Source of the DNA: Sclerodactyla briareus
Taxonomy: Eukaryota > Echinodermata > Holothuroidea > Dendrochirotida > Sclerodactylidae
Direction: 5' to 3'
DNA: 64,000 nucleotides
Assembly: GCA_026419785.1 (NCBI GenBank)
Contig: JAODTK010001443.1
Span: 62,001-126,000 of the forward strand
Part shown: positions 1,306-25,574 of the stretch, piece after piece
How positions within the stretch are numbered: the first letter of the stretch is position 1
Layout of the letters: each line of letters starts with the position of its first letter
The notes under the pieces: generated by a model
Told to the model about the DNA's origin: nothing
Databases searched by the model: none
What the model saw: the letters and a program-made list of their open reading frames with translations, nothing else
Program-made: the position numbers and the translations under genes

Positions 1306-1372
1306 GCGGTACGCTGACAATAACTAGTGTACCTTCTTCAGAGCAAGACAAAGCTTCACGAGTCCACTGTAA

Positions 1373-1790: not shown

Positions 1791-2134
1791 CTTGTGTTCC
1801 TGTTGGATCCGACGTTTGCTCGACAGTTCGGAGAAATTGATATTTACTGTCCGTCTCTGCCCAGTGATTTCATTCGCGTTCGGTCCTACGTTCTTTTGTC
1901 CCTCGAGTAAACGTCAGGTCCCCAACCACAACACGGTGCAACCGTTGACGGCCTCACCGCCAAAGAGAATGTCGACATTTACTGCTAATTTGATAATGGT
2001 GCATCTCAATACCACGAGTTACTCTCTTGTTTTCAGCGAGCGATCTCTTCCTCTACGCAATGATGCGTTACGTTGCAATGCATGAATGTATCACATGCCT
2101 TAACACACGACACCCCGGATAAAGAGACACGGAT
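1791..2134 (+). repeat. Dispersed repeat R5, copy a
   Basis: Best-preserved member of a roughly 340-bp family with relatives at 11446-11745, 17925-18140 and 9390-9580. Shared blocks include GCTCGACAGTTC, TTGACGGCCTCA, ACTGCTAATTTGAT and ATGGTGCAT. A 97-codon open frame across it is not preserved in the other copies, so it is not treated as a gene. Confidence 0.7.
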
Positions 2135-2990
2135 GTATAGATGTGGCATCTTCGGTCTCGAATCGTGACATGCATGGCGTGCAAAAAGAAAGATCACTGT
2201 TATGGTGTGACACTACAAGTTTCCACGCAGGTGACAGCGTGTCGATTACCAACGCACCGTTTTCCCCAATTCCACTTCGAGTCTCCCATGCTAAGTGCTG
2301 TACAAATATCGGCTCAAAATTACTTCCAAATGGGTGGTTGGGTGACGGATATTACCATGATGATATCGTCAATTCCTTTGAGTGAAGGGGGGCAGCATGT
2401 CACTGAAAAGTTCGACTGAAACCGAGGATTCGATATCAATACGTCCTGGACAACGCAACACGTCCATAACTTACAGGCCAGCGGTCATGTAACAGATTTG
2501 CTTTGAACTAGAACAGGTGAAAAAGGGACATATAAAAGATATTTCAATTTCAAAATGGTAATCACTTAGAATTTGATACTATTCTTTAATCAACTGTGAA
2601 CGATTTTTTTTTTTTATTTTTTTATAAATATTCATCCCAAAAACCATAGCTGGTTTGGTACAAGATTTTAGGAGTATAAAGTTTTACTTCGACTTAGTAT
2701 TATAGGGGATCCTATGATTCCTGTGCCTTCTCGATACACCCAAATCGGCTGAAATTCGGTCAGGAGTTCCGGCTGTCATAATGTAATAAATAGAAAGTAC
2801 TGAAAGTCCAGTCATAATTACATGACCATTGGCCTTAATTTAAACACCCACTAATCTACTAGTCTCAGACCCCAGTCTGTCAGCAACAACATCTGACAAT
2901 AACTTTTTGCATTGCAGCTATAGTGGGTTGTCAGGCTCAATTGACGATTTCATATTAGGTTGACACAGATACTGGAGAATTATTAATGTG
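2135..2990. other. Unassigned non-coding sequence with poly-T tract
   Basis: No recognisable gene or repeat copy. A poly-T run with one interrupting A lies near 2604-2624 and could be the reverse of a retroposon tail. Nothing else stands out. Confidence 0.5.
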
Positions 2991-3107
2991 CATACCTGTA
3001 GGAATATCACCTGTATAGATCTATTGGCTTTGTAACGAGTGCCAAACACCTGTAATAATATTACTTCAACAGTCGATCTTTGACTTCCACCACCCTATAA
3101 CATCAGT
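2991..3107 (+). repeat. Dispersed repeat R4, copy b
   Basis: Aligns with R4 copy a at 1373-1491 over about 117 bases, with scattered substitutions and single-base indels. It keeps the GTAACGAGTGCCAAA and CACCTGTAATAATATTA blocks. The level of divergence suggests old copies. Confidence 0.75.
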
Positions 3108-3794
3108 GCATCTGTCCGTATGTACCAGACCATAAATCACAGTCTACTGTGTGTACCCAACTGTACCACGTGGATCGTTTAAAAAAAACGCTACTGTTGG
3201 CACTTGTTACTGATATCCAAGTGCGCAAACTCACATGTAGCTTTTAGCGATCCTGTTTTCGCCATCTATGTTAGAATGGGGGTTCCTACCTTTCCAGATC
3301 GTAGACTTGGGTTAAATGATCCGAGGGGGCACACAACAGCGAGGGACTAATTTTCTATACACGAAATCAGATAATATGAATGCTATGAAGATGCTATTCA
3401 AACAATGTGGTTTTCAGCTCTGGTCGCCCCAACCCGGGGTGTCTATTCAACGGGCAACCATTAGATGGGTCGCGCGTAGGACAAATCTGCATTAGCGCAG
3501 ACAGAAACATATTTTTCAACATGCAGGTTAGGCTGTTTCAATCGACTGTCATATCATTCTCTTAAAATGGACAACTCCTCTGAACAGAGCTTGACATCTA
3601 ATAACAGATTCTTTAAGTCACACGCAGTCCATGATACCTGATGCCTCTATTCCAACCATGAAATTACTACTCTGAGTTGTTATGCCAACCGTACTCCACC
3701 AAATCATTCAAATCCATCCGCGCTGCAACTCGGGAACAGCAAGTGAACACTCAATTTGCAATCATATAGTCATTACTTGGGATATCCCCAAATC
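3108..3794. other. Unassigned non-coding sequence
   Basis: No gene, RNA gene or repeat relationship was recognised in this stretch, which includes an A-run near 3181-3188. Confidence 0.5.
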
Positions 3795-4010
3795 ACCTCG
3801 CTCCCGGAGACCGATTACGACCCTCTCATGAGGATAAAGCAATTAGCGACCCACAAAGCAGAGGAAAATTCCGAGGAATAGTTCTCCCGATAAGTACAAT
3901 TGGGTCGCAAACAACACGGAGGGGGCAACGAACACAAGATGGGTTGATAATACCGAGAGACACCCGGCTCATGGTCGGTCATGATGTCAATTAGCCTGTT
4001 CACGGTTACA
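3795..4010 (+). repeat. Dispersed repeat R2, copy a
   Basis: One of three co-oriented copies (with 12960-13190 and 22740-22925). Shared landmarks are CATGAGGAT followed by CAATTAGCGAC, an AAAATACTCCTC-like block, a GAATCGGGTCGCAAACA-like block and a GAGGAGG-like block. The minus-strand 62-codon frame here is not shared as a protein between copies and is taken to be chance. The family is unrecognised. Confidence 0.7.
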
Positions 4011-4694
4011 GTTTAATGAGATGATGATTCGTTGTGTCAAAGGTCATAGGAGTACATAGGAGTACACTGACCGTCCTACGTTGCACGATCAGTGTGCAAA
4101 ACCATTTTTCGGTGCTCCCCTAATGATAACAAAACATCCCACCAGCACCAAACTTTACGAGAATAACCGGTGTGGCACCCCCATAATTATCGACATTAAC
4201 ATCCGAGAAGATGAGAAGATGTGGTTGCCAGTCTCCGAGAGTGCGTGACCTCGTCTATAACCCCCGGACTGTTTAGTGGTGAACCGTTGGGCCGCCGCTG
4301 GAGCTAAGACTGTCCCAGCTGCCAGTGACCGATGGTGTGAATGCCCGTCTCAGATGCTCTCAAAAAGTGGAATATTATCATCAGGCACTGTCAGTGCTGG
4401 GTAAGGGAGAGTTGCTATGTTATTATAAGGATAGGAAATCTAGATTTGACCATAACTTCAACGACTGAATATAAATTACGACCATTTTTCTATAAACGCT
4501 GGATGCGTCCGTTTGGATTATAGTTAGGGGGAGGTGAGCTCAGAATATTACACCCAGAAATATGTTAAATAGTGGAAATGTTGCCTGGGTCTCTCGATAG
4601 CTATGGAAATGTGTTTTGTTTTCCCAGCCACTAGGTTTCGTTTCTAAAGGTCTCGACGTACATACTTATTAAGCTAAATTAGATAGCCATTTTT
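4011..4694. other. Unassigned spacer between R2 and R3 copies
   Basis: No gene seen. A short direct repeat, CATAGGAGTA twice, lies near 4045-4065. The corresponding spacer of the second array copy (13191-14714) shows no clear similarity, so the spacer is either fast-diverging or inserted independently. Confidence 0.45.
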
Positions 4695-5070
4695 CCTCTC
4701 AGAATCTCTAGAAACTCTCCAAATTGGAGAAATCTCATGACCGTTAGACTAACAAGCCAGAGGGACTTCAAAACAGTTCGATGTGATCCTAAGAGCAAAT
4801 TGGATACAGAGGATCCTAGGTTTTTAAGAGGTAGTCGATCCGCTGGAACAAAACGGTTTTGACAGCCTTTCGAGCCCTCGCTGAGTCATACCTTTCAGTA
4901 GAGGCCAAAGATTATATATAATGGATTCGTGGCGACACTCATCACAATGTATCCTAAATGCTTCCAGCCCATCCCAATTCGCTACGCAGTTGCTATTGAG
5001 TGTGCTTTCATTGCTCCTGGCAACCACGACAACTTACAGCCTTCATTGGCATTGATTATGTCAGGCGTAG
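4695..5070 (+). repeat. Dispersed repeat R3, copy a
   Basis: Aligns with 14715-15110 over nearly its full length and with 23750-24010 over its first two thirds. Shared blocks include ACTAACAAGC, AATGGATTCGTGGCG, TTGCTATT.GAGTGT and ACGACAACTTA. The 85-codon open frame through it is broken in the other copies. It lies about 0.9 kb downstream of R2 copy a. Confidence 0.72.
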
Positions 5071-5689
5071 ATCTATCTATTGTGTTTCATAGGCTGGATG
5101 TTTTTGTAAACAGGACCCAGGAGTATCTTACTCTCCTAGGCGGGAAGTGTATACTTGCTCTCTTAGAATTGCGACGGATTGCTTGAAGCTCTCGCAATCC
5201 GAAATCTCAAATTTGAAGTTCGAACTCGGTTGTTCTCTAGTTATCCAACTCATCTGTCTTGGCGCAATGACATCACGGAAGAATACAATCTATGTGCGAT
5301 TGGCTTCAGGTGATTGCAACGGAGTTGTCCAGACTGAAAGTGGAAGTTTCTTATTTGGAGGTGAGATTGGAAGTTACATTTCCATAGGTACATAGTCAAT
5401 AAATTTGTACCATAGAAACTTACGGATTCTGTAGAATGTTCCAATGATTCTCCTGATGTGACAAGTTCTGAAACTGTAAATTTTACCCTGATCCTGCATT
5501 GGACATGTCTTTACCTTTCCAACAAACGCACATGATAAAAATAAAATGTTTCAATATCACTTAGTTAGTTCCACACTTCTACTGAACGAACAAATAACGG
5601 TAAAAACAGTTCAGTACCACACGTCGTCTAGACGTATTGATATCATACTCCGCATTAGAAATGAGTGGTAGTGCAGTGTGATGGATAAA
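5071..5689. other. Unassigned spacer between R3 and R1 copies
   Basis: Two short overlapping open frames (82 and 85 codons) occur here. Neither shows a recognisable motif. No RNA gene or further repeat copy was found. Confidence 0.45.
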
Positions 5690-6065
5690 GAATCATCATG
5701 CAATCCCCTCTCAGGCCCGATAAGACTTCAATTCCATGCGAAATGAATGCCCCCACTGAACTGCAAACGCTCGATAAAATCCCTATGATCGAATCATGTC
5801 ACATGTGGGGGGGGGGGGCATCACCAATGCATTATTCATGTTCTGAGTTCTTCGATTTTCATCCAAAACATACTAAAAACTCACCGACGCCCTAAATCAT
5901 GTGCATGAAACTCGACTTGTCATAGTTAGATATTCACTGATATTCCTTCCAGGAAATCGTTTCCTGGAGTGAAATACATTTATAAATAAATTAGTAATCG
6001 AACGAAAATCGATGATCGGAGCAGATGAGGAGCCTAATACCAATACATCGGTGTCGTGTATTTCA
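5690..6065 (+). repeat. Dispersed repeat R1, copy a, with terminal hairpin
   Basis: Aligns with each 400-bp unit at 15506-16305. Shared blocks include TGCATTATTCAT, ATCCAAAACATACTAAAAAC, AGTGAAATACATTTATAAAT and AAATTAGTAATCGAACGAAA. A perfect 8-bp stem with a TCG loop sits at 5949-5967. A 12-G run at 5807-5818 is private to this copy. No protein is encoded. The class is unknown. Confidence 0.78.
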
Positions 6066-6169
6066 TTTTGTTTTAAACAGATTCAAGAACTGCTGGGGAT
6101 TTGCACGCCATCATTGCAGTAGATGGCTGATCCCATCCCATGTGTGCCTGTAAGCAGGTAAGTATGGGC

Positions 6170-6320
6170 AATTCAAATATTCACAAATATCCTACTTTGG
6201 CGTGATTTCCCCTGGCAGCCCAAAGTAAAAACATTCGTGAATAAATTACCAATCAAGCGAAAATCCGATGATTATGAGAAGCCTACTTACTAACTGATAT
6301 CGGTGTTGTTTCATAAAAAA
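6170..6320 (+). repeat. Partial R1-like copy
   Basis: Keeps the R1 block AACATTCGTGAATAAATTA-like, then AAGCGAAAATCCGATGATTATGAG, broken here as AAGCGAAAATC and GATGATTATGAG, and ends like R1 with a GATATCGGTGTTGTTTCAT-type sequence. It lies about 100 bp after copy a, so R1 may itself tend to duplicate in tandem, as it did at 15.5 kb. Confidence 0.55.
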
Positions 6321-6343
6321 ATACCCTTAGATATATCGGTGTT

Positions 6344-6388
6344 GTTTCATACACTTATGTTTCATACACTTATGTTTCATACACTTAT
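6344..6388 (+). repeat. Three exact 15-bp tandem units
   Basis: The unit GTTTCATACACTTAT occurs three times without a mismatch at 6344-6358, 6359-6373 and 6374-6388. The sequence just before it (ATATCGGTGTTGTTTCATA) is also repeated once upstream at about 6296. Replication slippage is the simplest cause. Confidence 0.9.
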
Positions 6389-6528
6389 ATATAACTCGTT
6401 TGCAAGGGTTAACGTGTGACAACCCGTAGTGCTGCACCTAATTGACAAAACCAACCACCAACCAATACATCAATCGACCCACTTAATGTATGAATTGTCC
6501 CAGATTCAAACCGTCCTCTCTGTCAGTG

Positions 6529-6780
6529 ATAATGATCTATATACCGTCGTCATTGTCATTACCGAGTGAAAAATTTTTTACACTATACAGGTAATACTGG
6601 CGGTTAGTATAGTAGGTTCCTAAAGGGCAATTCCGAAAAACCCCATCCCTTGATGACGATGCAACTTTTGACTTCCATTTGGTATAATCGCCCAGTCCGT
6701 CGATGATTCATCAGATATTACAGAATGTCAAAAATTATCGACCCATTATTATTCACTAGAGGCGGGACTAAAACCGTGAG
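6529..6780 (+). repeat. Dispersed repeat R6, copy a
   Basis: Aligns with parts of 16879-17360. Shared blocks include ACCGTCGTCATT, GATGACGATGCA (second copy AATGACGACGCA), CGCCCAGT, ATTACAGAAT-like and TATTCAC followed by GGCGG and CTAAAAC. It lies downstream of R1 in both places, which supports one long ancestral unit. Confidence 0.6.
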
Positions 6781-7038
6781 ACACGCTCGAACATGAGTGG
6801 GGCTTAGTCTAGATGTTGACTGTTGAGTTCTCGTGTAAATATTCCCTAGCATGCCTGTGGAATCGGTAAATTAATTCGTTCAGGATTAGATTATGGGTCA
6901 TTATATAGGCCTTGAAAATCCTCGTCCTACTAATACTTACATCATGGCCATCGCCTTTACAGCTATCTATATTAATGAGTGAGCGGAGCTAGTGGAGTCC
7001 TGCATGGGAACGTAGCAATGAGCACAGGCAGGTCGTGC

Positions 7039-7071
7039 CATGTTGCAACTAGGCAGACTAGTTGCAACATG
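7039..7071. repeat. Perfect 13-bp inverted repeat
   Basis: CATGTTGCAACTA at 7039-7051 pairs perfectly with TAGTTGCAACATG at 7059-7071 across a 7-base loop (GGCAGAC). The stem could form a cruciform or an RNA hairpin. There is no T-tract or gene beside it, so a terminator reading is not supported. Confidence 0.85.
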
Positions 7072-7436
7072 TAAAGGAGCTGTTATCTCTGTTTTCTATA
7101 TATTGTATGCCATGGTAGTGAGTGTTACTACTGCTCAGCGTTGGCCAACACAACCTGTACAATTGATGTTCCCCTGAAAAAGTGGAACCACCCTTTTTTT
7201 TTGTACTCCTTAAGTCAATTGGAAGGGGGTCCTCTCCATGTGGATCGTTCTAGCTTTATACTGGAAGTACACTTCCAAGAGTAGCAACTGGTTGCAATTG
7301 TGAGTAATTTTGGCTGTATTCTCACAATTGTCTATGTTGTAGGCTGGGATTTCCGCCCCGTGTCAGGGTGGCCGAAATGTTTCCGCAAACTTCCACTGTT
7401 TCGAAAATTCACTTTCACATATATATATGAAATATA

Positions 7437-7440
7437 CTTT

Positions 7441-7472
<32 letters not shown>
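7437..7472. repeat. (TA)n microsatellite
   Basis: About 30 bases of almost uninterrupted TA dinucleotide preceded by CTATATTA. Likely polymorphic in length. Confidence 0.9.
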
Positions 7473-7475
<3 letters not shown>

Positions 7476-8224
7476 GAAAATGTTCATCCGCCGACACGCT
7501 GAATGGATCAAAAGTCGCAGCTTGTTGACTAACGTAGTGCTGAAAACATTATCCAAGGAACCCCAACAAGGGCTAATGTATTTGGGGCCGTGTACGTCGG
7601 AAATTGGAAGATTAAAATTACTGAATCTGTACGAATAACCAAAGCCTCCATCCGTTGGCTCATCAGAATGTTTTTCGCCTATTTTACTGGACTGTTCTAT
7701 ACGTTCTCCTTCAAAATCTTAATTTCGTCGTAGCCTTCGTCAGGTGTTCGTCGAACATTCATTTCAATTATTGACCTGACAGGCATGTGAGAATTGGGGG
7801 CGAAATTTCAGATCTAAACGATTTCGACGAACCGTTGACTATTTTTATTATTTATAAATATAATATGAAAAACTTACCAATACTACTTTGATAGAACGCC
7901 GTAATTCCAACGGGTCCAGATGCGAAACTGTTTGAAAAAACAAAGTACGAACATAGGTGTGATTGGTGAGTTTGTAAATGTGGACAATATTCTAGAAGAT
8001 CTTGTCGAGGTGAACCGTCTGTTACAGACGCATCGACTGCAAGGGCAATGGCATGTAATTAATTAGACGGCAAACAACGTTCATACACACACTGCAATTT
8101 TTGATTCCTCTAAAAAGTGATTCACCCAAGTGGTTCATTTCATAGAGGAAAGTTTCACGTACTGGACCTTTGGTTCATTCACCAGCGATGAAAATTCTAG
8201 GCCATATAGTTTTCCACAATCTAG

Positions 8225-9580: not shown

Positions 9581-11445
9581 AGATTTATTTCGAACGGCAA
9601 CCGTCGTACTTTCCCCGGTTTACCTCTCGCTTCGACGACAATTAGTGATTTCATGCATGATGGATGGAGTAAAGTATCGTTGACGATTCACAGTGGATCA
9701 CAGTTTATGCAAGGGTCATATCTGTTTTTGACCAGTTGGAGCGAATGGTCGTTACTGCGGCCTTCTTTGCTGCTCATAGTTTTCTCTTGAATAGAAACAT
9801 AGATTCAACTGCGGAAAAATATGAGATGGAAAGAGACAGAAGATAAGTTATCCCCTTCTCTTACGTAATAATCCAGTAGTTCATCTACAGCATTTTTCCT
9901 TTAATGTATGCAAAGTGAATGATGCACGTTATGTCACGGACTGTCCGCGTTACTTTCGATGTCCTGCTCCAATTACCAAAACATACGTTTACTAACCATT
10001 TGGTTTATTCCTCAAGTTTAGAGGTAACAGTTGACAGGTTGTGGGGTGTGGCGGTTTTTCCGTTGCTGAAATCAAACACTGTCAATCTGAGACGTTTCAT
10101 GTAGCTCGGATCATGCATTGGTAATGCATTGCGATACTTTTTATTACAAAAAACTATTCTTCACGTTTTTCCCTCACCGGTATCTTATACAATACGTTTT
10201 TGTTTTTATCCAAAACATTGTTCACCAAGTTGGAATACAACAAGATACTGACTCATCACCACAACAGCCGAAATATTGCTTGCCGTGTTTACACAGTCAG
10301 CGTCTACATTCCAAGGACCATTGCAAATAGAGCATGTCTTCTTCCCGACTGCCAGAACATAACTGGACTTTGGCAATAGGGGTGCCTTCAAGATGTTGTA
10401 CGTGCTTGGCTTACAAACCAATAACCTGCAACGATTTTCTTCATCAATTTCAACACACAGCGCATCGGAGTGTTTGAAGAAGATCACCATAGCTCCAGTT
10501 CAACAAATTTCATCCACCACACCCACCATGCGCACATACGCACAACCACGCATAACACAATGGTGGTAACTGCCAAAAAAAGGTCTCAAGTGACTGGCAA
10601 ACCACCGCCCTGAATTTCGTACGTCGACGACTTAGACTCTGGTGTCTCGACAATAATGAACAAACGCGCAATATTCGCATCGTCCTATTCCATGGCCTAT
10701 AGCTCTTGTGTCATATGCATCACTATTGATTTATACATGGACAGTCGAACAGAACGAAATGTACGGCGTATAGTAGTACACCTCATATAGTTGCATAGGT
10801 AACAATTGTGCTCTGGCGAAACAGGACGCCAGCCATCCCGCGTGAACGATTAACGTCATTCAGAGTTACCCCATGTGCTTGAACTAGTCGATAAATCAGT
10901 CCGCACATTTGTCACAGTTTGTCAACTTCTCCTAGCATAGCTGTTAAGTTTAAATATCTATGAAGAATCGTACTGGTGACAGTCACAAAGTCCTCAGAGA
11001 GGACGTCGCATGGTTCAATCAAAAACGGTCGGACGGAGCACTGTAATTTATTTCAAGAGAAGAGAGAGAAAGAGGACGACGGAGATTTATGTGCCCTCTT
11101 CAAAGTAAAATATCTGGTAATGTTGTACGTCAGTGGGTTACATCATAAAAATATGTATTATAATACAGATATGCATTAGGTGCACTGCATTGGCGATAGG
11201 TACATGTATATCGTTGGAATATCCTGTGGGTAGCTGTAGTCAAAGTAACCTTACCTACGTACATATTTCCTTTACACAACGTTCTAGCAAGGTAGACAGG
11301 GCGGCTTAAGGTGATTCCTGGGTCAAATATCACATAATACTCCAAGATTTATCTGAAAGCAGGACTAGGACAAACGACTAGCACCCTCAGTCATTGATAT
11401 TGAAAATCAGTGAGAGATTTAGGGCCTCCACGTCAAAATCTTATC
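9581..11445. other. Unassigned non-coding sequence
   Basis: About 1.9 kb in which no gene, tRNA, obvious hairpin or repeat copy was recognised. Short open frames (94 codons or fewer on both strands near 10.1-10.5 kb) have no recognisable motif. Confidence 0.45.
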
Positions 11446-11745
11446 CTGTGTATTCCAACGTTGGCTCGACAGTTCAGATACATTTAATGTGCTTCTCGCT
11501 TGTGCCCCGCCATTTTATTTGCGGCCAGTCTTACTTTTGGGGAGATTTAGGTCCTCCGTCTCAATACAGTCATACAGCTGTTGACGGCCTCATCGTCAGA
11601 GAGACACCATGATTCACTGCTAATTTGATCATGGTGCATAATTGGCGAGCGTTGTTTTGCCACGCAGTGATTCGTTTCGCTGCAATTTATGAGATGCATC
11701 ACACCTTGGTCACCGAATTGACACTCCAGAAAAGACAGATCGGTG
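11446..11745 (+). repeat. Dispersed repeat R5, copy b
   Basis: Aligns with copy a (1791-2134) from TTGGCTCGACAGTTC through TTGACGGCCTCA, CACTGCTAATTTGAT, ATGGTGCAT and a final GACACTCC...AAAGA block. It is about 40 bp shorter than copy a. Confidence 0.7.
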
Positions 11746-12324
11746 TTAACTAATGTTTATTATTTTGTCGGTATCGAAAATCTATACAGCATGGCGCACG
11801 GAATGGAGGGAAACTATTTTGACAAGATAATGAGTTCCAAAATCAGGGGCTAGGTTCCAGTGTTAGCGCTCAGAAATTGAATCTGGGAGGAAATTTCCCC
11901 TCCTATTATGTTTTCTCAAGAGAAGGATTTTCAAAATCAGGAGGGGTGTTCCATCAGCATTAGTCGATTTTAGCTGATATAGGTGGAAAAATCCCAAAAA
12001 CCGGAGAATTCCTCACCTACAACTATTTTGTGTGTGTGATTTCCCCAAACACAGTCGAAATTGATCATTTCCTTACTTGTGCAAACCCGTCTTACTACAT
12101 GTCCGCGGCAAACATGTCGATTGCCCCCCTCCCCCTCTCGTTTCTCGACACTTCCTTTTCCAGTATATGTTCGACAAAGATTCGCTTCCAGTCCATCCTC
12201 GTCCAATGCAACACGTTACAGACCAACACTTCCTAAATATCCACAATAATAGGCAGCCCTCTACGGCAACAACATCGGTCAATGCGTGAGGCAATTAAAC
12301 TGTAATGGGTGATGTTAGGCTCGA
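11746..12324. other. Unassigned sequence with overlapping short frames
   Basis: Five overlapping frames of 62-78 codons occupy both strands at 11970-12294. This reflects low stop density in a C-rich stretch (CCCCCCTCCCCCTCTCG) rather than a gene. No domain was recognised. Confidence 0.45.
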
Positions 12325-12440
12325 GTGCGATTTACGAGTATACATTTGAACATGTTTACATAACCTGATAGAAGATTACGGAAACATGAAGCTTCCCCAT
12401 GCTGTCTCCTTGGCTGATTGCCTGTACGTTTATAGCCTAT
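12325..12440 (+). repeat. Dispersed repeat R7, copy a
   Basis: Aligns with 19655-19790: GTATACATTT, then AACATGTTTACATAA (second copy AACGGGTTTATATAA), and a CTG-TCTCC-TTGG-CTGATTG block matching CTGCCTCACTGATTG. A short, old repeat of unknown class. Confidence 0.5.
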
Positions 12441-12454
12441 CACCTTATGCTAGC

Positions 12455-12509: not shown

Positions 12510-12959
12510 CTGTATAAACCCAGTGACTCACGCCATACACCAGACAATTGGAACAAGTTTATTCGACTGTTCTACTTCAGCATATTCTGAAATTTGCCCG
12601 TACTTTTTCGGTGATATCTGTCGTGTGCATTGGCATCATCCCACGACACTAAATTGGCTCTAGTCTATATAAGTGTCGTTTTCAAAGGGAGATAGCATCA
12701 TTTGATATAGAGCTCGACATTATGACAAGAAAAATCAGAAATTTTTATGTGTTCTTTATAGCACCTGTGTGCTCTACGCTCAATAACATATAAGAATGCT
12801 CTACCGGTTCATTCTAGCTGATCATCAGCGTTGCAATTCAGATTCAGCAGTGATATACTTAAGATTTTCAATGACAAGTAATAACCAGGTAGCCAGGGAA
12901 GTGCTAGAGTTAGTAGTTCTGGGGTATAACAAGTGCTATCACTCTCAACATCTCCAATT
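12510..12959. other. Unassigned non-coding sequence
   Basis: No recognisable content between the hairpin and R2 copy b. Confidence 0.5.
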
Positions 12960-13190
12960 CACCTCGTTCTCAGAGACAGATTACAACCCCTCCCCCCCCC
13001 CCCCCACACCCCCGCATGAAGCAATCAGCGAACTACGAAAGCGAAGGAATCTCGGGAAAATAGTCCTCCCTTTAGATAAGTAGAATCGGGTCGCAAACAT
13101 CAGGAGGAAGGGGAACTAGTAAACACAGGGGCTGCCTATGCTAATACAACTGGCTCCTGGTCGATCACGAATTCAACTTGGTTAAACGAG
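12960..13190 (+). repeat. Dispersed repeat R2, copy b
   Basis: Aligns with copy a (3795-4010): ACCTCGTTCTC.GAGAC.GATTAC, CATGAAGCAATCAGCGA, GAAAATAGTCCTCC, GAATCGGGTCGCAAACA and GGCTCCTGGTCGATCA. A C-run at about 12989-13004 interrupts it. Confidence 0.7.
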
Positions 13191-13664
13191 CCACGCTTCA
13201 GACCCGCGCCGCTAGTGCCATGACGGTTCTATACTGCAATATGCCCCAAATTTTTCAACGATGTGTCGGCAGAGTCAGAGTTCGAAATCTGATATCGAAC
13301 TTAAAACCTGGCAAGGGGCAGGGACCTGAATTCGCCCAGTTGCCTGCAGCAAATCCTTCAAGGGAATTTTCGACATACTGCAACGTGGAAGAATTGGGGT
13401 AATAGTACACACGAAGGCGGCCAACTTAGAGCGAAAGATCGTGTGGTATCATTGACCATTGGCAAGCAAATAGTCAAGATTCGAAATCCAAAACAGTCAC
13501 TAGACGTTTTTCCTGGGAGGCTGTATACTCACATTTTCGAAGGTCGAGGGCTTGTTCTTAACTCCGTGGTGTTGAAGGGACTTTCTGGGGTTACTGAAGT
13601 TTGTTACGGGATATTTGTAGGAATTTTCGTTGGGTCACGCTGGAATTGGAACTAACGCTCCAGG
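13191..13664. other. Unassigned spacer
   Basis: Short open frames (74 and 70 codons) with no recognisable motif, and no repeat copy identified. Confidence 0.4.
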
Positions 13665-13825
13665 TTCCGAGAGAGTAGACGGGTCCTGGAGTTCACTGAT
13701 CTTCCTTTCGGATGGGGACCGTAGAAGACGTTCCCGGGAGCATGGTGGGATTGGTTAAAATCCGGCCTCGATATAAACTGATTCACTAGTCGAGAAGAGA
13801 AGGCGAGTTCGCCGGTGCTCATCAG
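13665..13825 (+). repeat. Dispersed repeat R9, plus-oriented copy
   Basis: Matches the reverse complement of 25575-25745. Shared blocks include TCCTGGAGTTCACTGATC, GGGAGCA, GCCTCGATAT, CTAGTCGAGAA-like and GGCGAGTT followed by CGCCGGTGCTCATC. These are the same family inserted in opposite orientations 12 kb apart. Confidence 0.75.
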
Positions 13826-14714
13826 CGAGCAATGCGGGCCAGGGTTCTACTAGGTGGCCTCAAGTGGATTCCTGAACCATAGAATCATATCAAACATGTC
13901 AACATCTATCCCTCAATTTTCTTTGTCCTAGTATCTTATGAGGAGCGTCCGGGAGAAGATACGCTACATTTTTGAAGTCTTTGAAATCTGGCTGAAACAT
14001 ATCGAGCCCGTTTCCCCTACAACCACACCGATGATATTTTTCATCACTGCCATTGTGGACAAAACGCTGAGCAGTACACATAAAACCAATGGAAGGCGTT
14101 CGAAGGTTTTAACAGATGATCGGTGGTCAAACCATCGAGGGCAGTCTTCAAAACCACCGAGAAATTTGCCTCGTCCATTACGAATGGACATTGATGGGTC
14201 AGTTCGTGTCGCGTTTTATGTACAGAAGTATTGCATCGCGAAGGTGTGGCGTCTTGTGGCGTCTTCCGGCGCGGTATTCGGAGAGGAGCTGTAATATCTT
14301 ACAATTGGACGGCGTAGCAACATGAGAGGTATCATTTTTGTCTCTGCATTGTGAACGTCATCTAACCAAAAACAACCATTCACTCGAAAGACTCCCAGCA
14401 TAGACCAGTAAACCAAACCGGCCCAGGTTCTATTCGACTTCTTTTGATCGATTCGCTTCGGTCTGTTGGTGTGGTTTTTGAAACGACAATAATGGAAATC
14501 AGCTAAATGATTGATATGTCGATGAACCTATGTAGTCTGTACCTAAAAACCTGCCGTGTCATAAAATTATTAGGGCATATCACCAGCACCCTGTATCCCG
14601 CGGACAACGATAGGATATCAAGAAAATACAGTATAACGTTTTTTTCCGCAGGTCTCGAACACGAACGTACCATATTGAGCTAAATAATTAACTCTCGAGT
14701 GACGCTCGAATCCT
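13826..14714. other. Unassigned sequence with several short frames
   Basis: Frames of 60-118 codons overlap on both strands at 13899-14416. The longest (13938-14294) shows no recognisable domain. A short direct repeat, GGCGTCTTGTGGCGTCTTCC, lies near 14248-14267. Confidence 0.4.
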
Positions 14715-15110
14715 CTCAAATTGCTAGCCAGTCCAGTTCTTTATAACCTTCTCGATTTGAAGATATCTCGAGACCGCTATACTAACAAGCCGACGGGACT
14801 TCAACACACCTCGACGTGATTCTAAGGGCAAATTGGACTTATTGGACCCAGGTATTCCATGTTCCTGATGTTTCAGGAACGCTGGGACAAATCGGTTTGA
14901 CAGCCGCTTGGTGATTCATTCCAATACACACTGCATGATCGAGGCGCTGACAACAATGTTAATGCGATGGATTCGTGGCGGCTCTCATCTCAATAAACTG
15001 TAACCCCTCCAGTCCGTTCCTGTCTGCTACGATGTTGCTATTAGAGTGTTCTCGGGCAGCCCCGACAACTTATCACCCCACTTAATTGGTACTGCTCATA
15101 TTAGGCGAGG
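14715..15110 (+). repeat. Dispersed repeat R3, copy b
   Basis: Aligns with copy a at 4695-5070 over about 390 bases, including ACTAACAAGCC, GGACTTCAA.AC, CGATGGATTCGTGGCGGC and CCGACAACTTATC. A private 8-bp hairpin (GTTCCTGA with TCAGGAAC, 14861-14880) interrupts it. It is followed by R1, as in the first array copy. Confidence 0.72.
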
Positions 15111-15505: not shown

Positions 15506-16306
15506 TCACTGTCTCATCGGGTCACGATGTGCAGCATGCGAATCTCCAGTGACCCTTCCTCAGGCACGATGATAATTCCATAAAAATTAATCCCCAAATA
15601 CAATCACGAGGAATTCGTGCACTTTAAGCGAATCATGTCAGATGTATAGGGGAAAATCACTATTGCATTATTCATCACTACTGGGTTCTTAGATTTTATC
15701 CAAAACATACTAAAAACTCACAGACGCTTTAAATTGTGAGCATGAAATTCAACGTATCGTAGTTAGATACCGGTTTATGCACCGATATTTTCCCCGGAAG
15801 TCGTTCCGGGAGTGAAATACATTTATAAATAAATTAGTAATCGAACGAAAATCTGATGATTATGAGGCTAGGCGCCTACCCATATATCTGTATTGTTTTA
15901 TTCAGTCACTGTCTCATCGGGTCACGATGTGCAGCATGCGAATCTCCAGTGACCCTTCCTCAGGCACGATGATAATTCCATAAAAATTAATCCCCAAATA
16001 CAATCACGAGGAATTCGTGCACTTTAAGCGAATCATGTCAGATGTATAGGGGAAAATCACTATTGCATTATTCATCACTACTGGGTTCTTAGATTTTATC
16101 CAAAACATACTAAAAACTCACAGACGCTTTAAATTGTGAGCATGAAATTCAACGTATCGTAGTTAGATACCGGTTTATGCACCGATATTTTCCCCGGAAG
16201 TCGTTCCGGGAGTGAAATACATTTATAAATAAATTAGTAATCGAACGAAAATCTGATGATTATGAGGCTAGGCGCCTACCCATATATCTGTATTGTTTTA
16301 TTCAGT
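15506..16306 (+). repeat. Exact 400-bp tandem duplication of repeat R1
   Basis: Positions 15506-15905 and 15906-16305 appear identical, with the match running one base further (16306). Both copies contain the R1 hairpin (7-bp stem CCCGGAA with TTCCGGG, loop GTCG, at 15793-15810 and 16193-16210). Other repeats in this window are strongly diverged, so perfect identity means a very recent duplication, ongoing homogenisation, or an assembly artefact. Confidence 0.97.
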
Positions 16307-16878
16307 TGGGGGGGAAATAACGTAGTCCATGTGGTGGAGGGAGAGAGGATGTTTTAATGTCAACTGCGTGCCTGTAGCACCAGCGACCTATTTTGGCGAC
16401 GTCTATCCTCCGGCATAGTGAAGTAGTCAGACGGATTTTTGTCGAGCAGACTACGCTAAAACACGATGCCTGGAGCCATTTTTACGGTCATCAAATGTCT
16501 CAGAAGTCTATAAACAACCCTCTCACTCTTTGTTATAGGCTACAACAGCTTGCCCTATTCAGGATAGTAGTATTTTAATTACTCTATCGTGTCAACTGCG
16601 TGTCAAATACCAAAGCTTGCATCCCAGTTTGAAACTGACGATATTTTCGGAACGCCTCACTTACTGGACAATGGCGAGGTATATAAGAGCAGTGGATCAC
16701 TTCTGCGCATTGTGCATGATGGGAAAGTATATGTTTGACACGAATGAGAATGGCAACGTGTTGGTGTCGCACCTTTTGTTGCAGCACAGAAATCCAATGG
16801 AGCATGATACATATCGTTTGGTTCAGTTTGACAAAGCGATGCTTTTAATGCACACAGGCTCGTCCTAGACTATAATAG
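16307..16878. other. Unassigned sequence with short open frames
   Basis: Open frames of 61 and 83 codons (plus strand) and 73 codons (minus) occur. The 83-codon plus frame and 73-codon minus frame overlap. No domain was recognised in any of them. Confidence 0.4.
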
Positions 16879-17360
16879 TGAGCTATATATCCTCTATAAC
16901 CGTCGTCATTCAATCCTATTGTCATATTATTGTCAATCACAGAAGATTTCGCACAATGCAGTCACCACCATAGACATGCCTATTCACTCTGACGCGCTCT
17001 CGATTGATTGACTGGTCAGATTACGCCTAACGGCGCATTAACACTAACAGTTTCTAACACCAGCACAGAACATATACACACAAACTTTTAGGTATAGGGC
17101 ATGCATGACCAGTCCTAATATCAGGCTGCCTTATAGAGCCTGAACTGCTGAAGGGCAAGGATTCGATAACTCTTAATGACGACGCATCTTTTAACTTGCC
17201 ACTTGTATCAACGCCCAGTTAATGCTTCCATGAAAATTATACAGAATTGTAGACGGCGTTCAACACTGTTGACATGATGGGAACCATCCCGCAAGCAACT
17301 ATATCTACCCCTTCGGTATCACCACATTAGTATTCACGGAGGGCGGAGCTAAAACTTATT
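16879..17360 (+). repeat. Dispersed repeat R6, copy b
   Basis: Aligns in blocks with copy a (6529-6780), with extra sequence in between: ACCGTCGTCATT, AATGACGACGCATCTTTTAAC, split here as AATGACGACGCA and TCTTTTAAC, then CGCCCAGT, ATACAGAATTGT and GGGCGGAGCTAAAAC. The larger length suggests insertions in this copy or deletions in copy a. Confidence 0.55.
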
Positions 17361-17924
17361 TAGTGGGGACAATGATAATATTTTACGTTCACTGTATACG
17401 ACGTGGGAGGCATTTCAATTAGGAGGCGAATGTCATACCTTCACAATGAAGGACCTCCACCAACCAGGCTGACTCGATAACTGAGATGTAAGAAAAAATA
17501 TTTAAAAAAACCCTCAACAATAACCCATTAGTGGAACCCCGTAATTCAAAATAATGCATAGGGGAGTACGGCACCGGAAAACGTTAAATTGTTGAGTGGC
17601 AGAAACAGACGATATTCTATACTCTACCCTCGAATTATAACAACACTCCCATTTTCTTTTTAGATACTGAACATGTCAGAATATAAACGCATTGGTGTCA
17701 ATATAGTGTTTGATAGATACCCAATGAAATTGTGTGTATTTTTTTTCATTGTTTCATACACAATCCGTTTGTTGTTGCCGTACTTGGCGCCAAATCGTTC
17801 AACCTCAAAATTCTCTATACAGTTGCTTCTCCCGGTAATCCCGGGAGTAATATCGCCATCGTTTTCTAGATTCAATCTAGATTCAATGTACTTAAACTAC
17901 GACCGGTCATGGCCTCTAACAGAC
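17361..17924. other. Unassigned sequence
   Basis: Contains the first part of a 137-codon open frame (17673-18086) that runs into repeat R5 copy c. The predicted protein has hydrophobic patches but no recognisable family. Its overlap with a dispersed repeat argues against a host gene. A short tandem TCTAGATTCAA occurs twice near 17866-17888. Confidence 0.4.
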
Positions 17925-18140
17925 CGTTCTCCTATCCCAGCGATTATGTTCTTTATAACCCGCTCTGCCTTAGCTTATCATATTCATTTGCATACGGCAC
18001 TTCACCCCCTGATGATTTTCACAGCCCTAAAACGTCCTGTCGGCTCACCGGCGAAAATGGAGAACCTGAAATATAGAGATATTTGATAATGGTGTATCGC
18101 GCTCTCTCCTCGAGTTTCGCTCTCTCGTCCGCTGGATGTG
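17925..18140 (+). repeat. Dispersed repeat R5, copy c
   Basis: Matches copy d in CATATTCATTTGCATACGGCA and copy a in GGCTCACCGGCGAAAA, TTTGATAATGGTG.ATC and a CTCTCTCCTCGAG-like end. Confidence 0.55.
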
Positions 18141-18639: not shown

Positions 18640-19500
18640 TACCCTTGAGCAAGGATTAGTTTTGTTCAGTTAAAAGGGGTCAGGAAGGACACAATACTCA
18701 TGAGAGACCCTGAAGCCAAACCATCCAAAAGAGAGAGAAATAACCCAGATGCCTAAGGAACTCGCCCACAATTCTTGAAAATTAAATAAATCAAGAATGT
18801 TCTTGAACGCATTCACCACTTAGACAGAATTACAGCATATCTTCAGAAAGGCTTTTCCGCTCATTAATAACTGCGAGAAGAAATATTCACGAATGTCCAA
18901 TGTCCAATGCACAGCGTTGCCACGAAGCTTGAGCAATGACCCAATTGGTAGTAACATTGGAGTACTCAAGAATTAGTGAAAGAAAAGGCCCTCTAATCCA
19001 TGAACAATTTTGAAAACCTGAATCAAATCACCTCGAATTCCTCTCAGCTCCATCGAATTTAAGTTAGACCAAGGTAAATCTCTAAGACAGTGAATTCATC
19101 CAGTAGCCTTCGTGAACGTTTTCAATTACCTCTCATCTTCGAGAAACAAGGACTCAATACTTAGACGAATACTACAGATAAGTTCTAGCCACCTACATCA
19201 ATATCTTTATCAAGCAAACTGAAGTGACTTCTAATCAAGTAAAAAAGAATCCAATTACCTTTCCTCGCAGCTTAACTCAGCACACTGCTTAGAGGGTTCA
19301 AAGAATTCACTCGATGAATATTTTGACCATTTTACTTGAAGGAAGCGTTGCGTTATTATTATTGCGAGTTTCCTAGAGAGTTTTATGTCCCAACACTCCG
19401 AAAACAATGTTGTTGGCATCTAGCTGTCTACAGCAATTTAACGAATAATCTGCCTTTACTTCGAGGTGAAAGATAAAAATGTTCTGAATGTCATATTATG
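18640..19500 (-). pseudogene. LINE reverse transcriptase relic, minus strand
   Basis: Read on the minus strand, this aligns at DNA level with the LINE relic at 61940-62900, from the block around the template/primer-grip region to the 3' end. Readable pieces include LRDLPW, then SMELRGIRGDLIQVFKIVHG, which matches the RRxRGDMIxVxKIxxG motif of jockey/CR1-type reverse-transcriptase C-termini, and REYFFSQ. Shared DNA landmarks are GAATTCACTGTCTTAGAG, TTTACCT, TCGATGGAGCTGAGA and TTCTCTC near the end. Stops and frameshifts break it throughout. The 5' part is missing. Confidence 0.75.
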
Positions 19501-21754: not shown

Positions 21755-21762
21755 GTATAATG

Positions 21763-21936
21763 CAAGGGCGCAGCCACTAGGGGGGTCCGGGGGTCATGAC
21801 CCCCAACTTTTGGGAAGGCTTCCATATACATAATGATTTTTTCACACAAATGTTTCCCATCACTGCTTCGGACCCCCCCCCCCAATGGCTCTTGACCCCC
21901 CCCCCCCCCCAACTTTCAGACAGTGGCTGCGCCTTG
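21763..21936. mobile_element. hAT-type miniature transposon with perfect 8-bp TSD
   Basis: The element starts CAAGGGCGCAGCCACT and ends AGTGGCTGCGCCTTG, giving terminal inverted repeats of 15-16 bp with one extra G on the left. It is flanked on both sides by the 8-bp duplication GTATAATG (21755-21762 and 21937-21944). An 8-bp TSD with CA-starting GC-rich inverted repeats is the hallmark of hAT elements. The 174-bp body encodes nothing and contains two C-runs (21876-21885, 21896-21911) and a mirrored G-rich stretch. Perfect TSDs imply a fairly recent insertion. Confidence 0.92.
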
Positions 21937-21944
21937 GTATAATG

Positions 21945-22739
21945 AAGTGATCGTGAATCACCTAACTAGTAACGGAATTTCTTAAATTAATATTTTTTTC
22001 TATACTGAACACTATTAAAAATACATCGAATTTGGCTGTAAAATTCATTGGATCCAATTCTTCCAGGTGCCACAGTTTGCATCAATTTATAGAATAATTA
22101 CTCAGAATGAAATACTTGAATTCAGTCACTGTTTCACAGTTCAGCAAGTATGAGTTATAATGAGTCGATCATTGTAGTGGTTTGGGCAATTTGCTGTTAA
22201 ACATGAACAAAACTTGTCGACATGAAAATATGTGGAATGAAATATGTTCTTTGACGAGAAAGTTGAAGAGGGAAATCAGAAAAGTATTCAGTATCTGTCA
22301 TTTAGTGGCCCAAAAAATATGTCATTCCAGTCCGATCCAGATTCACCTCAAATTTGCGTAAAACTGTAAATTGGCTCTCTCTTATAAAAGAGAAGACAAT
22401 TTTTTTTTTTTAAATGCACTCGGTTGATGAATATTTATAAACTGTTTACATTCATCTCATTGTGCACTATATATCTTCTATACGCACTGATCGACTCATG
22501 ATAATGATATTGACTCATGATAACGCTACCATACAACCACTCATTCTGTCCCCCTCCCCTCTTCGAAAAAATAGAGGACGTCCGCCGCTCTTGCTAATAC
22601 GTTGAGCATGCGGGGGATTATCAATTGTGACTTGAAAGCCGGAACCTGAACTTTCTCCCGTCTCAAATCTATAGTTTTCTACAAAATCGGCACATACTCC
22701 AATTTGACTGTTTTCTTCTACTACATCCAGTATTATCTC
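21945..22739. other. Unassigned non-coding sequence
   Basis: Contains a T-run near 22399-22412. A 133-codon minus-strand frame (22515-22916) extends into R2 copy c and shows no recognisable domain. Confidence 0.4.
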
Positions 22740-22925
22740 AGCGACCGACTCTACGAACCATCCCATGAGGATTAACCAATTAGCGACAGAGAGCGAAGAG
22801 ATCTTGAGAAAATACTCCTCGTGACGATGAATAGGTTGAATCGGGCGCAAAACATCACGGAGGAGACAGTAAACACTCAGAAAGCTTGTTAATACGTCGA
22901 ATGTTGAATTCGTCACGATGCCTCA
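22740..22925 (+). repeat. Dispersed repeat R2, copy c
   Basis: Aligns with copies a and b: CATGAGGATTAACCAATTAG, the AAAATACTCCTC block, GAATCGGGCGCAAAACATC, CACGGAGGAG and GTAAACAC. It lies about 9.8 kb after copy b and 1 kb before R3 copy c, which parallels the first array copy. Confidence 0.7.
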
Positions 22926-23170: not shown

Positions 23171-23749
23171 ATTTTTCCTAATTCTAGGCTAGGGCGGACA
23201 TTTGTACCAATTGTCATATCAATCGGATGAACCGTCAAAGAGTTATTGCGCTATCACGTCTGACGGCGGCGGTAGAGACGACAACTAACACTTAAAAGTG
23301 TTACGAGGATATACTTAAGCCATGCCGTACCGACAACGAATCCCGCAAAAGGCAGGGATGGAAAAAAAAAATGAAAAAAAAAACATCAAGAAACTTTTTG
23401 GGAACTCACCGTGCCAGCAGGCTTACGAATTCAATGACGTGAAACATGAGCTGAAAGATACGGCACTCTACCTTGTTCCTACAGTCTTGACAGGAGATTC
23501 GTATGTATATACATTATTATATCAACTACGTTAACATGGGCGCTGGAACCGGGGGGACGGGGGGGGGGGAGTCCCCACCAATATTCGAGACTGCTCCCAT
23601 TGACTTTGTGTTTTTCCACACACTATTCCAAAAAAATGGCCATGCCCCCCCCCCCCTCAATATCGGAGACGAATCGGCGCCAATGACTGTAATTAACGTT
23701 CGAGTGTCACCCTAAAACAACCATATCCTCGTTACAACGTTCCTTCCTC

Positions 23750-24010
23750 AAACTCTTCAGAACCTTTCAATTTTGGAGACGTCACGAGCCCGCTAAACTA
23801 ACAAGCTAAGAGGATTTGAAAACATCTCAGCAGGCTGCTGGCATGGGGGACATCTTAACGGATGGAAGTTGGATACATGATATTCAGGATTTTAAGAGGG
23901 ATGTCGTAACGCTGATACGAAATCGTTTGACGGTCGGTTATGTGAGTCACGATATTAGAGGCCCGTCAACGTTTTTATAATGGATTCGTGGCGACTCGGC
24001 ACTGGAGTGT
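23750..24010 (+). repeat. Dispersed repeat R3, copy c (partial)
   Basis: Matches copies a and b in CTAAACTAACAAGC, TAAGAGG.ATGTCG, AAATCGTTTGAC and ATAATGGATTCGTGGCGACT, then similarity stops. It is about 9 kb after copy b. Confidence 0.65.
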
Positions 24011-24067
24011 CTGAGAGGCCATTAACCTATTGCCTAAACTGTGCAGATTCCCTAGGTTCGTTGGTTC

Positions 24068-24140
24068 GTCTGATTATGATGATTATGATGATTATGATTA
24101 TTATGATGATTACTATGATTATTATTATCATAATTATTGA
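24068..24140. repeat. Imperfect (ATT/ATG)n microsatellite
   Basis: About 70 bases of TGATTA and ATTATT variants. Possibly the remains of a LINE or SINE tail, but no body was recognised beside it. Confidence 0.85.
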
Positions 24141-25574
24141 GTATATAGGGTAAAATTCTATATATCGATCCGGAAAATAGAGCCTATTTTTCTTCGAACT
24201 CTCCTCGTGTTGTCCGTGCAATTTTCTTGATATCTTTGGCCTGTTGATACACCATGGCGTGTAGCGCAACATTGGCCTTTGTTCAGTTATTATAAATCGA
24301 ACCGTAATTGGTGATTATTTGTTATCACGCTATAGGCTGGTATTTCTTACCGCAATATATTTTATCCACTACCGAAAACATGTAACACATTGTCTGGCCG
24401 AATGTCAGTCCACATTTCGATAACAACGTTAATTCACACTAGGAAACTTATTTCTCTTCCAGGAACGTGGCGTGATTACACTAATTTGTAATAATCGATG
24501 TTGTCAGGTGATCCAACTCCGACCAGCGAACTCTTCTCTAGAACTCATTGGTTAACCTCTCAGCAAAGTACAAGAATTATGGAGGCGTCTCTTTCGTCAC
24601 CTATGGTGACAATTTGGGCGACTCCCCAGGGGTGAACCTGGGAGGGTCACGACCTCTCCAAATGGGCCTGTCTGCCCATATTACGACATTGATCTCGAAC
24701 AGTCGAGAGGACTCAGTGGGCCTGGGATGGTACCAAAGACGAACAGCACAGTATTAGCACGTGCCAATTGATAGTATATGATAGTAGGGATATAATGTGT
24801 CCGCTAGTTCAAGGAATTTAGAGAAAATGTTCAGCAATGAGATTCGGGAAGACTGGCAATTAATCTGATAGCATGATCTTTGGAGTATCAAAGCGACATC
24901 CTGGCTCTCAGTGACTGTTTGGGTGAATTGCTTTGGCAAATTGTTGTCGCCCTCGACTGTGACTATATGGGGATGAGACGTAAGATATGACCCCCCCCCC
25001 CCCCCCCGAACATACTGGGGGTATACTGGGTGATTTGCAGACTGTTCAGTGTCAGGAGCGGCCGGAAGGGAACATGCCCAGGTTACGGCTTATGAACATC
25101 ACATGGTGAAGCATTACCTAGGCGTCTATTAACCTATGTAATTCTCTCGGGGGGACACATGCCTTACTTGGGTGTAGCGGCCTATAGTCTACACAATCTG
25201 TATTGATGAGTATAGTGCTTAGAGGAATATGGTAAATGAATGTCCCTCCAAAAAAATTAGCTGTGAGCATGACATTCATCATTTCAGTTTTAACTAATAT
25301 ATTGAAGTGGAAGTCGCCCCCTGAAATAGAATGCATTCGTGAATAAATTAGAGAATATAGCAAATCAATAAATGAATCCCTTCAATTAGGAGACATGCCT
25401 GATGTTTTATTCATGCGCAACCCATGGGGGAGTTGACGATGCATTGACGCTGGTTGAGCAACAACAATTCGAGCGGAGCTAGCATCTTCAGTCATGATTA
25501 ATTTTTCATTTGAAATCCACAGGTTCGGGAAGCCAAGTAAGGCTCATCATGGAACCCTGACTGTATTGATCGTA
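24141..25574. other. Unassigned sequence with a doubtful R1 tail
   Basis: Holds a C-run (24991-25007). At 25320-25345 the block ATGCATTCGTGAATAAATTAG matches R1-like sequence near 6240, shown here as CATTCGTGAATAAATTA, at the place predicted by the 10-kb spacing, but the surrounding similarity is weak. No gene recognised. Confidence 0.4.

What the first reader, a model, noticed from the sequence alone, without database searches (positions are those of the whole stretch)
1791..25345. Colinear repeat modules at ~10-kb spacing: a decayed giant tandem repeat?
Modules R2, R3 and R1 recur in the same order and orientation near 3.8/4.7/5.7 kb, 13.0/14.7/15.5 kb and 22.7/23.7/(25.3) kb. R6 follows R1 near 6.5 and 16.9 kb, and R5 precedes R2 each time. 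Independent transposon insertions would not be expected to keep order and strand. Either a roughly 10-kb segment was tandemly duplicated twice long ago, or these modules are parts of one long repeat family. The spacers between modules look unrelated, which is puzzling under a simple duplication model. The third R1 copy is weak.
Basis: seen in the sequence. Interest (0 to 1): 0.72.

Follow-up and report, generated by a model that had tools for sequence, protein, structure and literature searches.

The report
Decayed three-copy tandem DNA duplication
A stretch of roughly ten thousand bases of apparently non-coding DNA was copied side by side twice long ago, and the copies have since worn away by mutation, deletion and insertion of mobile repeats into scattered matching islands; this looks like ordinary genome decay rather than a new kind of element.

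Summary
Unit A (1048-7910) and unit B (10780-17550) share five strong islands and several weaker ones, same strand and order, at offsets of 9.1-10.6 kb. A third unit C keeps two firm islands (22736-22895, 23740-23997) and a doubtful one (25261-25351). Profiles of the islands find no firm copy elsewhere on the 183-kb contig. A 35-place pattern from island M3 hits three places in the 319-Mb genome: A, B and C. So this is a local tandem duplication, not, as far as tested, a dispersed family.

The "unrelated spacers" are largely explained. Three of six A-B spacers keep weak homology; others hold interspersed repeats. Simulated decay with one substitution rate plus large indels gives similar coverage, identity and island size.

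Not reproduced: a 45-base perfect run in M4 (0 of 480 simulations), which may mean selection or gene conversion. B also carries a perfect 400-bp tandem copy of M4.

Verdict: an ordinary, well-supported ancient tandem triplication; interest low.

The parts
1048..1182 (+). M0, unit A (partner 10780-10920)
   Evidence: blastn E 3e-08; profile built from both copies finds no other place at E below 0.1 on the contig
1798..2204 (+).
   Evidence: blastn E 1e-17 with 11444-11821
2410..2463 (+). M1b, unit A (partner 12169-12216), weak
   Evidence: local block, offset 9759, score 17.0, within the range of the controls
2468..2846 (.). Interspersed repeat in unit A between M1b and M1c; by the block boundaries B has 17 bp there
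   Evidence: 55 other match rows, 736 first-look candidates of which 40 were scored; flanks; alignment
2841..2950 (+). M1c, unit A (partner 12234-12333)
   Evidence: block score 24.8; better than 100 of 100 random segments
3784..3990 (+).
   Evidence: blastn E 2e-15 with B and 4e-09 with C
3979..4249 (.). Interspersed repeat in the A spacer M2-M3
   Evidence: 34 of the 39 non-array match rows
4499..4638 (.). Second interspersed repeat in the A spacer M2-M3
   Evidence: 5 of the 39 non-array match rows
4705..5067 (+).
   Evidence: blastn E 5e-31 with B, 1e-11 with C; pattern found only in A, B and C genome-wide
5710..6068 (+).
   Evidence: blastn E 6e-50; run statistics
6208..6313 (+). Second, diverged partial copy of the 3' half of M4 in unit A
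   Evidence: profile E 1.6e-09
6522..6774 (+).
   Evidence: blastn E 6e-05 for its core 6649-6696; three weak blocks
7773..7910 (+). M6, unit A (partner 17400-17550), weak
   Evidence: blastn E 0.024; block score 25.4, within the range of the controls
10780..10920 (+). M0, unit B
11444..11821 (+). M1, unit B
12169..12333 (+). M1b and M1c, unit B
12950..13176 (+). M2, unit B
13443..13897 (.). Interspersed repeat in the B spacer M2-M3
   Evidence: matches elsewhere on the contig and an inverted copy at 25501-25915
14738..15107 (+). M3, unit B
15506..16306 (+). Perfect 2 x 400-bp tandem copy that carries M4 of unit B (15559-15907 and 15959-16307)
16878..17355 (+). M5, unit B
17400..17550 (+). M6, unit B, weak
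22736..22895 (+). M2, unit C
   Evidence: profile from A+B only, E 4.6e-11
23740..23997 (+). M3, unit C
   Evidence: blastn with A; profile from A+B only, E 2.3e-20 for 23754-23997; pattern with 0 mismatches
25261..25351 (+). M4, unit C, doubtful
   Evidence: profile E 0.018 in the window, 0.052 on the contig; right order and strand
18038..18123 (+). Possible third M1, inconclusive
   Evidence: E 0.0025; competing alignment to A 9461-9679

Best explanation
A roughly 9.7-kb segment of apparently non-coding DNA in a 319-Mb eukaryotic genome was tandemly duplicated into three head-to-tail units long ago; unequal crossing-over or replication slippage is the usual route (recalled) and is inferred here. 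The units then decayed separately, with about 0.3 substitutions per aligned site between A and B, frequent small indels, large deletions and insertions of interspersed repeats. Stretches spared by large indels survive as the colinear modules; the spacers are where insertions, deletions and repeats have accumulated. Shown: order and strand of the strong islands, no firm copy elsewhere within the stated sensitivity, repeats in spacers, residual homology in some spacers, no codon phase in M0-M4. Inferred: the duplication mechanism, the neutrality of most modules, the order of the two events.
For: Blastn on both strands, with no order imposed, puts the five strong A-B islands and two A-C islands on the + strand in the same order. 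A colinear search (order and strand imposed) gives 13 A-B blocks, against 2 or 3 in each of three controls treated alike; four of the 13 exceed the best control score of 33, the other nine are individually within control range. A+B profiles find C-M2 and C-M3. No firm other copies on the 183-kb contig or in 221 kb outside the array. M3 pattern: 3 forward, 0 reverse, 0 control matches in the genome. Query 5690-6790 finds only itself and M4 of B. Spacers M0-M1, M1-M2 (through M1c) and M3-M4 beat 100 of 100 random segments. A high-copy repeat fills A 2468-2846 where the B blocks are 17 bp apart. Simulation with pair identity 0.74 and large indels (0.016 per site, mean 150 bp) gives coverage 0.26 (0.08-0.48), identity 0.767 and largest island 371, against the real 0.23, 0.752 and 407. 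Identities of M0-M4 do not differ (chi-square p 0.17) and their mismatches show no codon phase, 5 of 5.
Against: The 45-base perfect run in M4 (best 50 columns = 49 matches) appears in 0 of 480 simulations, and M4's longest run and best window beat 2000 of 2000 shuffles, so M4 is not explained by uniform decay. In M3 the three-way identical columns cluster (longest run 14, 0 of 5000 shuffles); in M2 they do not (P 0.69). The fitting simulation gives more islands (11.7 on average) than the real 7. Spacers M2-M3, M4-M5 and M5-M6 of A-B, and all four M2-M3 and M3-M4 pairs with C, show no residual homology. The tails of A and B beat 29 of 30 random segments, but the upstream pair beats 28 of 30, so the tail signal is weak and the ends of the unit are not fixed. 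The third unit rests on two firm islands.
Confidence: 0.85

Rival explanations
1. The modules are tandem-duplicated functional non-coding elements (enhancers or exons of a non-coding RNA) held by selection, while the spacers evolve freely.
For: Decay with small indels alone cannot give the real pattern: in the three settings at pair identity 0.75 coverage stays at 0.81-1.00, against the real 0.23. M4 has a 45-base perfect run. A 14-base run within M3 is shared by all three units and goes beyond chance. Both firm C matches fall almost wholly inside A-B modules.
Against: Adding large indels to uniform decay removes the need for selection on the islands in general, though not on the M4 core. Identities of M0-M4 are alike. 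No Rfam match at E up to 1 in 1-28000; fold z-scores of 12 pieces of M0, M2, M3 and M4 lie between 0.77 and -2.00, the lowest in M4. No second species was available.
Confidence: 0.12
2. The M4 core is alike in A and B because of recent short gene conversion, not selection (compatible with the best explanation).
For: M4 is a site of repeated local rearrangement: a perfect 400-bp tandem in B and an old partial copy at 6208-6313 in A. The run is confined to about 50 bases.
Against: No direct test; a selected element would look the same in one genome.
Confidence: 0.4
3. The modules are pieces of one large transposable element inserted three times.
For: Order and strand would be kept inside one element. 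Interspersed repeats abut M2 (3979-4249) and M1c (2468-2846).
Against: M3 pattern: three places in 319 Mb. Query 5690-6790: only itself and M4 of B. The five fetched loci of the repeats at 3979-4249 and 4499-4638 share no module with the window apart from the last 12 bases of M2; loci of the 2468-2846 repeat were not compared. No module profile hit at E 0.1 in 221 kb. The pattern would miss a copy with more than 3 changes in 25 fixed bases, so a few equally diverged copies could be missed.
Confidence: 0.05
4. The modules are exons of three tandem paralogous genes or pseudogenes.
For: Exon-like sizes (about 130-410 bp for the strong ones) with diverged spacers. The best protein-level match in M4, on the minus strand, is 74% over 31 aa.
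Against: No codon phase in M0-M4, 5 of 5; only 10 of 97 gaps are multiples of three; protein-level similarity appears in several frames and on both strands; no Pfam match among the 9 array ORFs scanned (the M4 minus-strand frame was not among them).
Confidence: 0.03

Closest known systems
Tandem (segmental) duplication
   Same: Head-to-tail, same orientation, kilobase-size units at one place, homology not limited to genes.
   Different: About 75% identity in the alignable part, far below the usual 90% cut-off for segmental duplications (recalled definition); two units well kept, one fragmentary.
Duplicated conserved non-coding elements (dCNEs)
   Same: Short non-coding islands in matching order among diverged spacers, one with an unusually well kept core.
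   Different: No cross-species conservation shown, no gene identified beside them, and the islands in general fit neutral decay. Literature seen only as a search listing (PMC1896008, PMC6730951, PMC4008492).
Fast DNA loss as described for Drosophila pseudogenes
   Same: Loss of about half of the DNA per ~0.2 substitutions per site. [quoted passage not shown] about 0.23 per site; the settings of my fitting simulation work out by hand to about 45% lost per lineage at about 0.16.
   Different: Other organism; my rate is a fit to one locus, not a measurement.

Membership tests
Ancient tandem duplication | Two or more neighbouring copies in the same order and orientation | tested here: met
   (order not imposed). 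One search imposes order, so there only the number of blocks against controls counts
Ancient tandem duplication | Homology not confined to a few modules | tested here: met
   3 of 6 A-B spacers beat 100 of 100 random segments (one of them through M1c); 3 of 6 do not
Ancient tandem duplication | Copies confined to one place | tested here: met
   contig; 221 kb; genome, M3 pattern; M4-M5 query. One search was too insensitive to count (it missed A and C); M0-M2 had no sensitive genome-wide test
Recent segmental duplication (>=1 kb, >=90% identity; recalled definition) | Identity of at least 90% | tested here: not met
   1478 of 1951 aligned bases, 75.8%, in 13 A-B blocks
Dispersed transposable element | Copies at unrelated places | tested here: not met
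   within the stated sensitivity
Tandem gene cluster | Coding exons | tested here: not met
   M5 and M6 were not tested for codon phase
Conserved non-coding element cluster | Slower evolution than neighbouring DNA across species | not testable with these tools
   The genome has no held relatives; within the genome the M4 core stands out and a short run in M3

The most novel reading that the evidence does not exclude
The M4 core (45 bases identical in units A and B while the aligned rest is about 75% alike) is a selected non-coding element, and the tandem triplication multiplied a regulatory element or a non-coding RNA gene whose copies are still kept; the perfect 400-bp copy in B would be the latest amplification of it.
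Probability: 0.12. Interest if true: 0.4.

Novelty: new member of a known kind. Interest (0 to 1): 0.2.

Why it matters
It is a worked example of how an old tandem duplication in non-coding DNA turns into colinear islands among unrelated spacers, an appearance that can be mistaken for a cluster of selected elements. The simulations show which part of the appearance needs no selection, and leave one 45-base core that does need an explanation.

Tried and rejected
Coding exons: protein-level self comparison showed similarity in several frames and on both strands at once; Pfam found only a reverse-transcriptase fragment at 27733-28110, outside the array. Non-coding RNA: Rfam gave nothing at gathering cut-offs in the window or at E up to 1 in 1-28000; folds of 12 pieces were unremarkable. 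A fourth unit: comparing C and B with 28000-40000 gave 5 and 2 blocks scoring 16.0-21.2, no better than the controls (A was not compared there); none on the rest of the contig. The B-C comparison was spoiled by an overlap of the two ranges and is not used. The first lax alignment aligned reversed sequence as far as the real one (7594 against 7566 bases, though at a lower score) and is not used. Profile scores of copies that went into a profile are circular and not used as evidence. Gene context: 10 more ORFs from the window and contig, picked by hand from a list ranked by amino-acid composition, gave no Pfam match. Identifying the organism by COX1 failed: 0 matches. Repeats were sought genome-wide for 1040-7790 of unit A and 14600-15110 of B only; the queries 12900-15110 and 13170-14650, an M4 pattern and an M2 pattern did not complete. 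Papers: two of three searches gave only listings; of one paper I saw passages. I did not search the literature for this locus itself.
Full report
What the window is. It is part of contig C1434 (bases 62001-126000 of 183,138) of a genome of 319,486,128 bases in 3171 contigs. I read it as non-coding eukaryotic DNA. The organism is not known to me; a search for COX1 found nothing.

Check of the observation. Low-stringency self-comparison on both strands gives a parallel diagonal. A and B match at 1048-1182/10780-10920, 1798-2204/11444-11821, 3784-3990/12950-13176, 4705-5067/14738-15107 and 5710-6068/15559-15904, with offsets of 9732, 9646, 9166, 10033 and 9849 and E-values from 3e-08 to 2e-50 (alignments). 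Weaker matches follow at 6649-6696/17172-17219 (E 6e-05) and 7773-7910/17400-17550 (E 0.024). A search with order and strand imposed gives 13 A-B blocks, against 2 or 3 in each of three controls treated alike. Four blocks exceed the best control score of 33; the other nine do not, among them M1b, M1c, the M5 blocks, M6 and 9461-9679/17979-18183. C matches A at 22736-22895 and 23740-23995. Profiles made from A and B alone find these at 4.6e-11 and 2.3e-20, and a doubtful M4 at 25261-25351 (E 0.018). All lie on the + strand in the same order. A possible third M1 at 18038-18123 is left open: M1 of A matches there (0 of 1000 random segments as good), but M1 of B does not (130 of 1000), and A's tail matches the same stretch about as well.

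Local or dispersed. Nine module profiles were run on the whole contig. Apart from the copies that went into them, they find the partial M4 copy at 6208-6313, the second 400-bp copy, 18038-18123 at E 0.0072, 25261-25351 at 0.052 and two minus-strand hits at 0.67 and 0.74. In 221 kb outside the array (rest of the contig, five repeat loci, five 10-kb samples) there was no hit at E 0.1. In the genome, the query 5690-6790 finds only itself and M4 of B. A 35-place M3 pattern with 25 fixed bases and up to 3 mismatches finds A, B and C with 0 mismatches and nothing else, with 0 reverse and 0 control matches. The limit is that a copy with more than three changes at those bases, as an equally old fourth copy may have, would be missed. 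The plain DNA search with 14600-15110 found only itself but also missed A and C, and the searches missed the other copies of M0-M3, so their silence proves nothing about these modules.

Spacers. Genome searches with unit A (1040-7790) and comparison with the background show interspersed repeats in the spacers: 2468-2846, 3979-4249 and 4499-4638 in A; 13443-13897 in B; 18663-19352, 21758-21943, 22019-22303, 23189-23280 and 25523-25946 in or around C. 3979-4249 overlaps the end of M2 by 12 bases and 2468-2846 the start of M1c by 6. The repeat at 2468-2846 lies between blocks that in B are 17 bp apart, which fits an insertion in A, with the reserve that one flank (M1b) is weak. The 998-bp spacer M5-M6 of A has no other match in the genome by this search and stands against about 45 bp in B, so it is a unique insertion in A, a deletion in B, or wrongly paired weak blocks. 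Residual homology: the best local score beats 100 of 100 random segments for spacers M0-M1, M1-M2 (the match there is M1c) and M3-M4, and does not for M2-M3, M4-M5 and M5-M6. The tails beat 29 of 30 and the upstream pair 28 of 30, so neither fixes the ends of the unit. None of the four M2-M3 and M3-M4 pairs with C shows homology; before M2, A-C beats 7 of 30 and B-C 29 of 30.

Does the pattern need selection. Real A-B, with one of the two 400-bp copies left out: coverage 0.23, identity 0.752, 7 blast pieces, largest 407, best 50 columns 49, longest perfect run 45. With small indels only, the three settings at pair identity 0.75 keep coverage between 0.81 and 1.00, and the three settings with mean coverage of 0.24 or less have mean identity of 0.66-0.70 (12 settings of 12 runs). 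With large indels added, coverage falls into the real range at about the real identity: 0.26 on average, 32 of 60 runs at or below 0.25, at 0.016 large indels per site of mean 150 bp, though with more pieces (11.7) than the real 7. So a single substitution rate plus insertion and deletion is enough for the islands as such. It is not enough for the M4 core: none of 480 runs reached 49 of 50, and the longest perfect run was 37. Within M4 the longest run and best window also beat 2000 of 2000 shuffles; M1 has a milder excess (best window P 0.0065) and M0, M2 and M3 none below 0.05. In M3 the three-way identical columns are clustered (0 of 5000 shuffles), in M2 not (P 0.69). Selection and short gene conversion both remain possible for M4. 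That M4 lies in a perfect 400-bp tandem in B and has an old partial copy in A shows local rearrangement there and makes conversion plausible.

Nature of the modules. No codon phase in M0-M4, 5 of 5; gap lengths not in threes (10 of 97); no Pfam match in the 9 array ORFs scanned; protein-level similarity in several frames and on both strands, the best in M4 being 74% over 31 aa on the minus strand; no Rfam match at E up to 1 in 1-28000; fold z-scores between 0.77 and -2.00 for 12 pieces of M0, M2, M3 and M4. They behave as plain non-coding DNA.

Age and order. The 13 aligned blocks of A and B agree at 1478 of 1951 bases, about 0.29 substitutions per site by Jukes-Cantor (worked out by hand; blocks chosen for likeness, so an underestimate). 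In end-to-end three-way alignments A-B is slightly closer (M3 0.632, M2 0.681) than A-C (0.613, 0.631) or B-C (0.573, 0.634). This hints that the A/B split is the younger, but it is weak. The pace of DNA loss needed is like that quoted for Drosophila (passages of PMC3296715): half-life 14.3 My at 0.016 per site per My, against about 45% lost per lineage at about 0.16 substitutions per site in the fitting simulation. This is a comparison, not a measurement.

Conclusion. An ancient tandem triplication of a roughly 9.7-kb non-coding segment, decayed to islands. It is a new instance of a known kind; the main loose end is the M4 core.

Noticed in passing
15506-16306: Two perfect 400-bp tandem copies carrying M4 of unit B, amid islands that are otherwise about 75% alike between units: a recent duplication or an assembly artefact.
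   Followed up: partly
46437-48618: Tandem array of about 600-bp units (3-4 copies, roughly 65-79% alike) with strong G over C skew (0.23 at 46-48 kb).
   Followed up: no
18663-19352 and 62157-62877: Inverted pair about 700 bp long and 70% alike, probably two copies of an interspersed repeat.
   Followed up: no
8722-8954: Imperfect palindrome of 233 bp (78% self-complementary), foldback-element-like, in the tail of unit A.
   Followed up: no
2468-2846: High-copy interspersed repeat of about 380 bp (736 first-look candidates in the genome).
   Followed up: partly
27733-28110: Reverse-transcriptase fragment (RVT_1, E 1.4e-13), LINE-like.
   Followed up: no
36899-38190: Cluster of short direct repeats (families of about 85 and 70 bp), with AGGTCA-like words in an 18-bp repeat at 37829-37873.
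   Followed up: no
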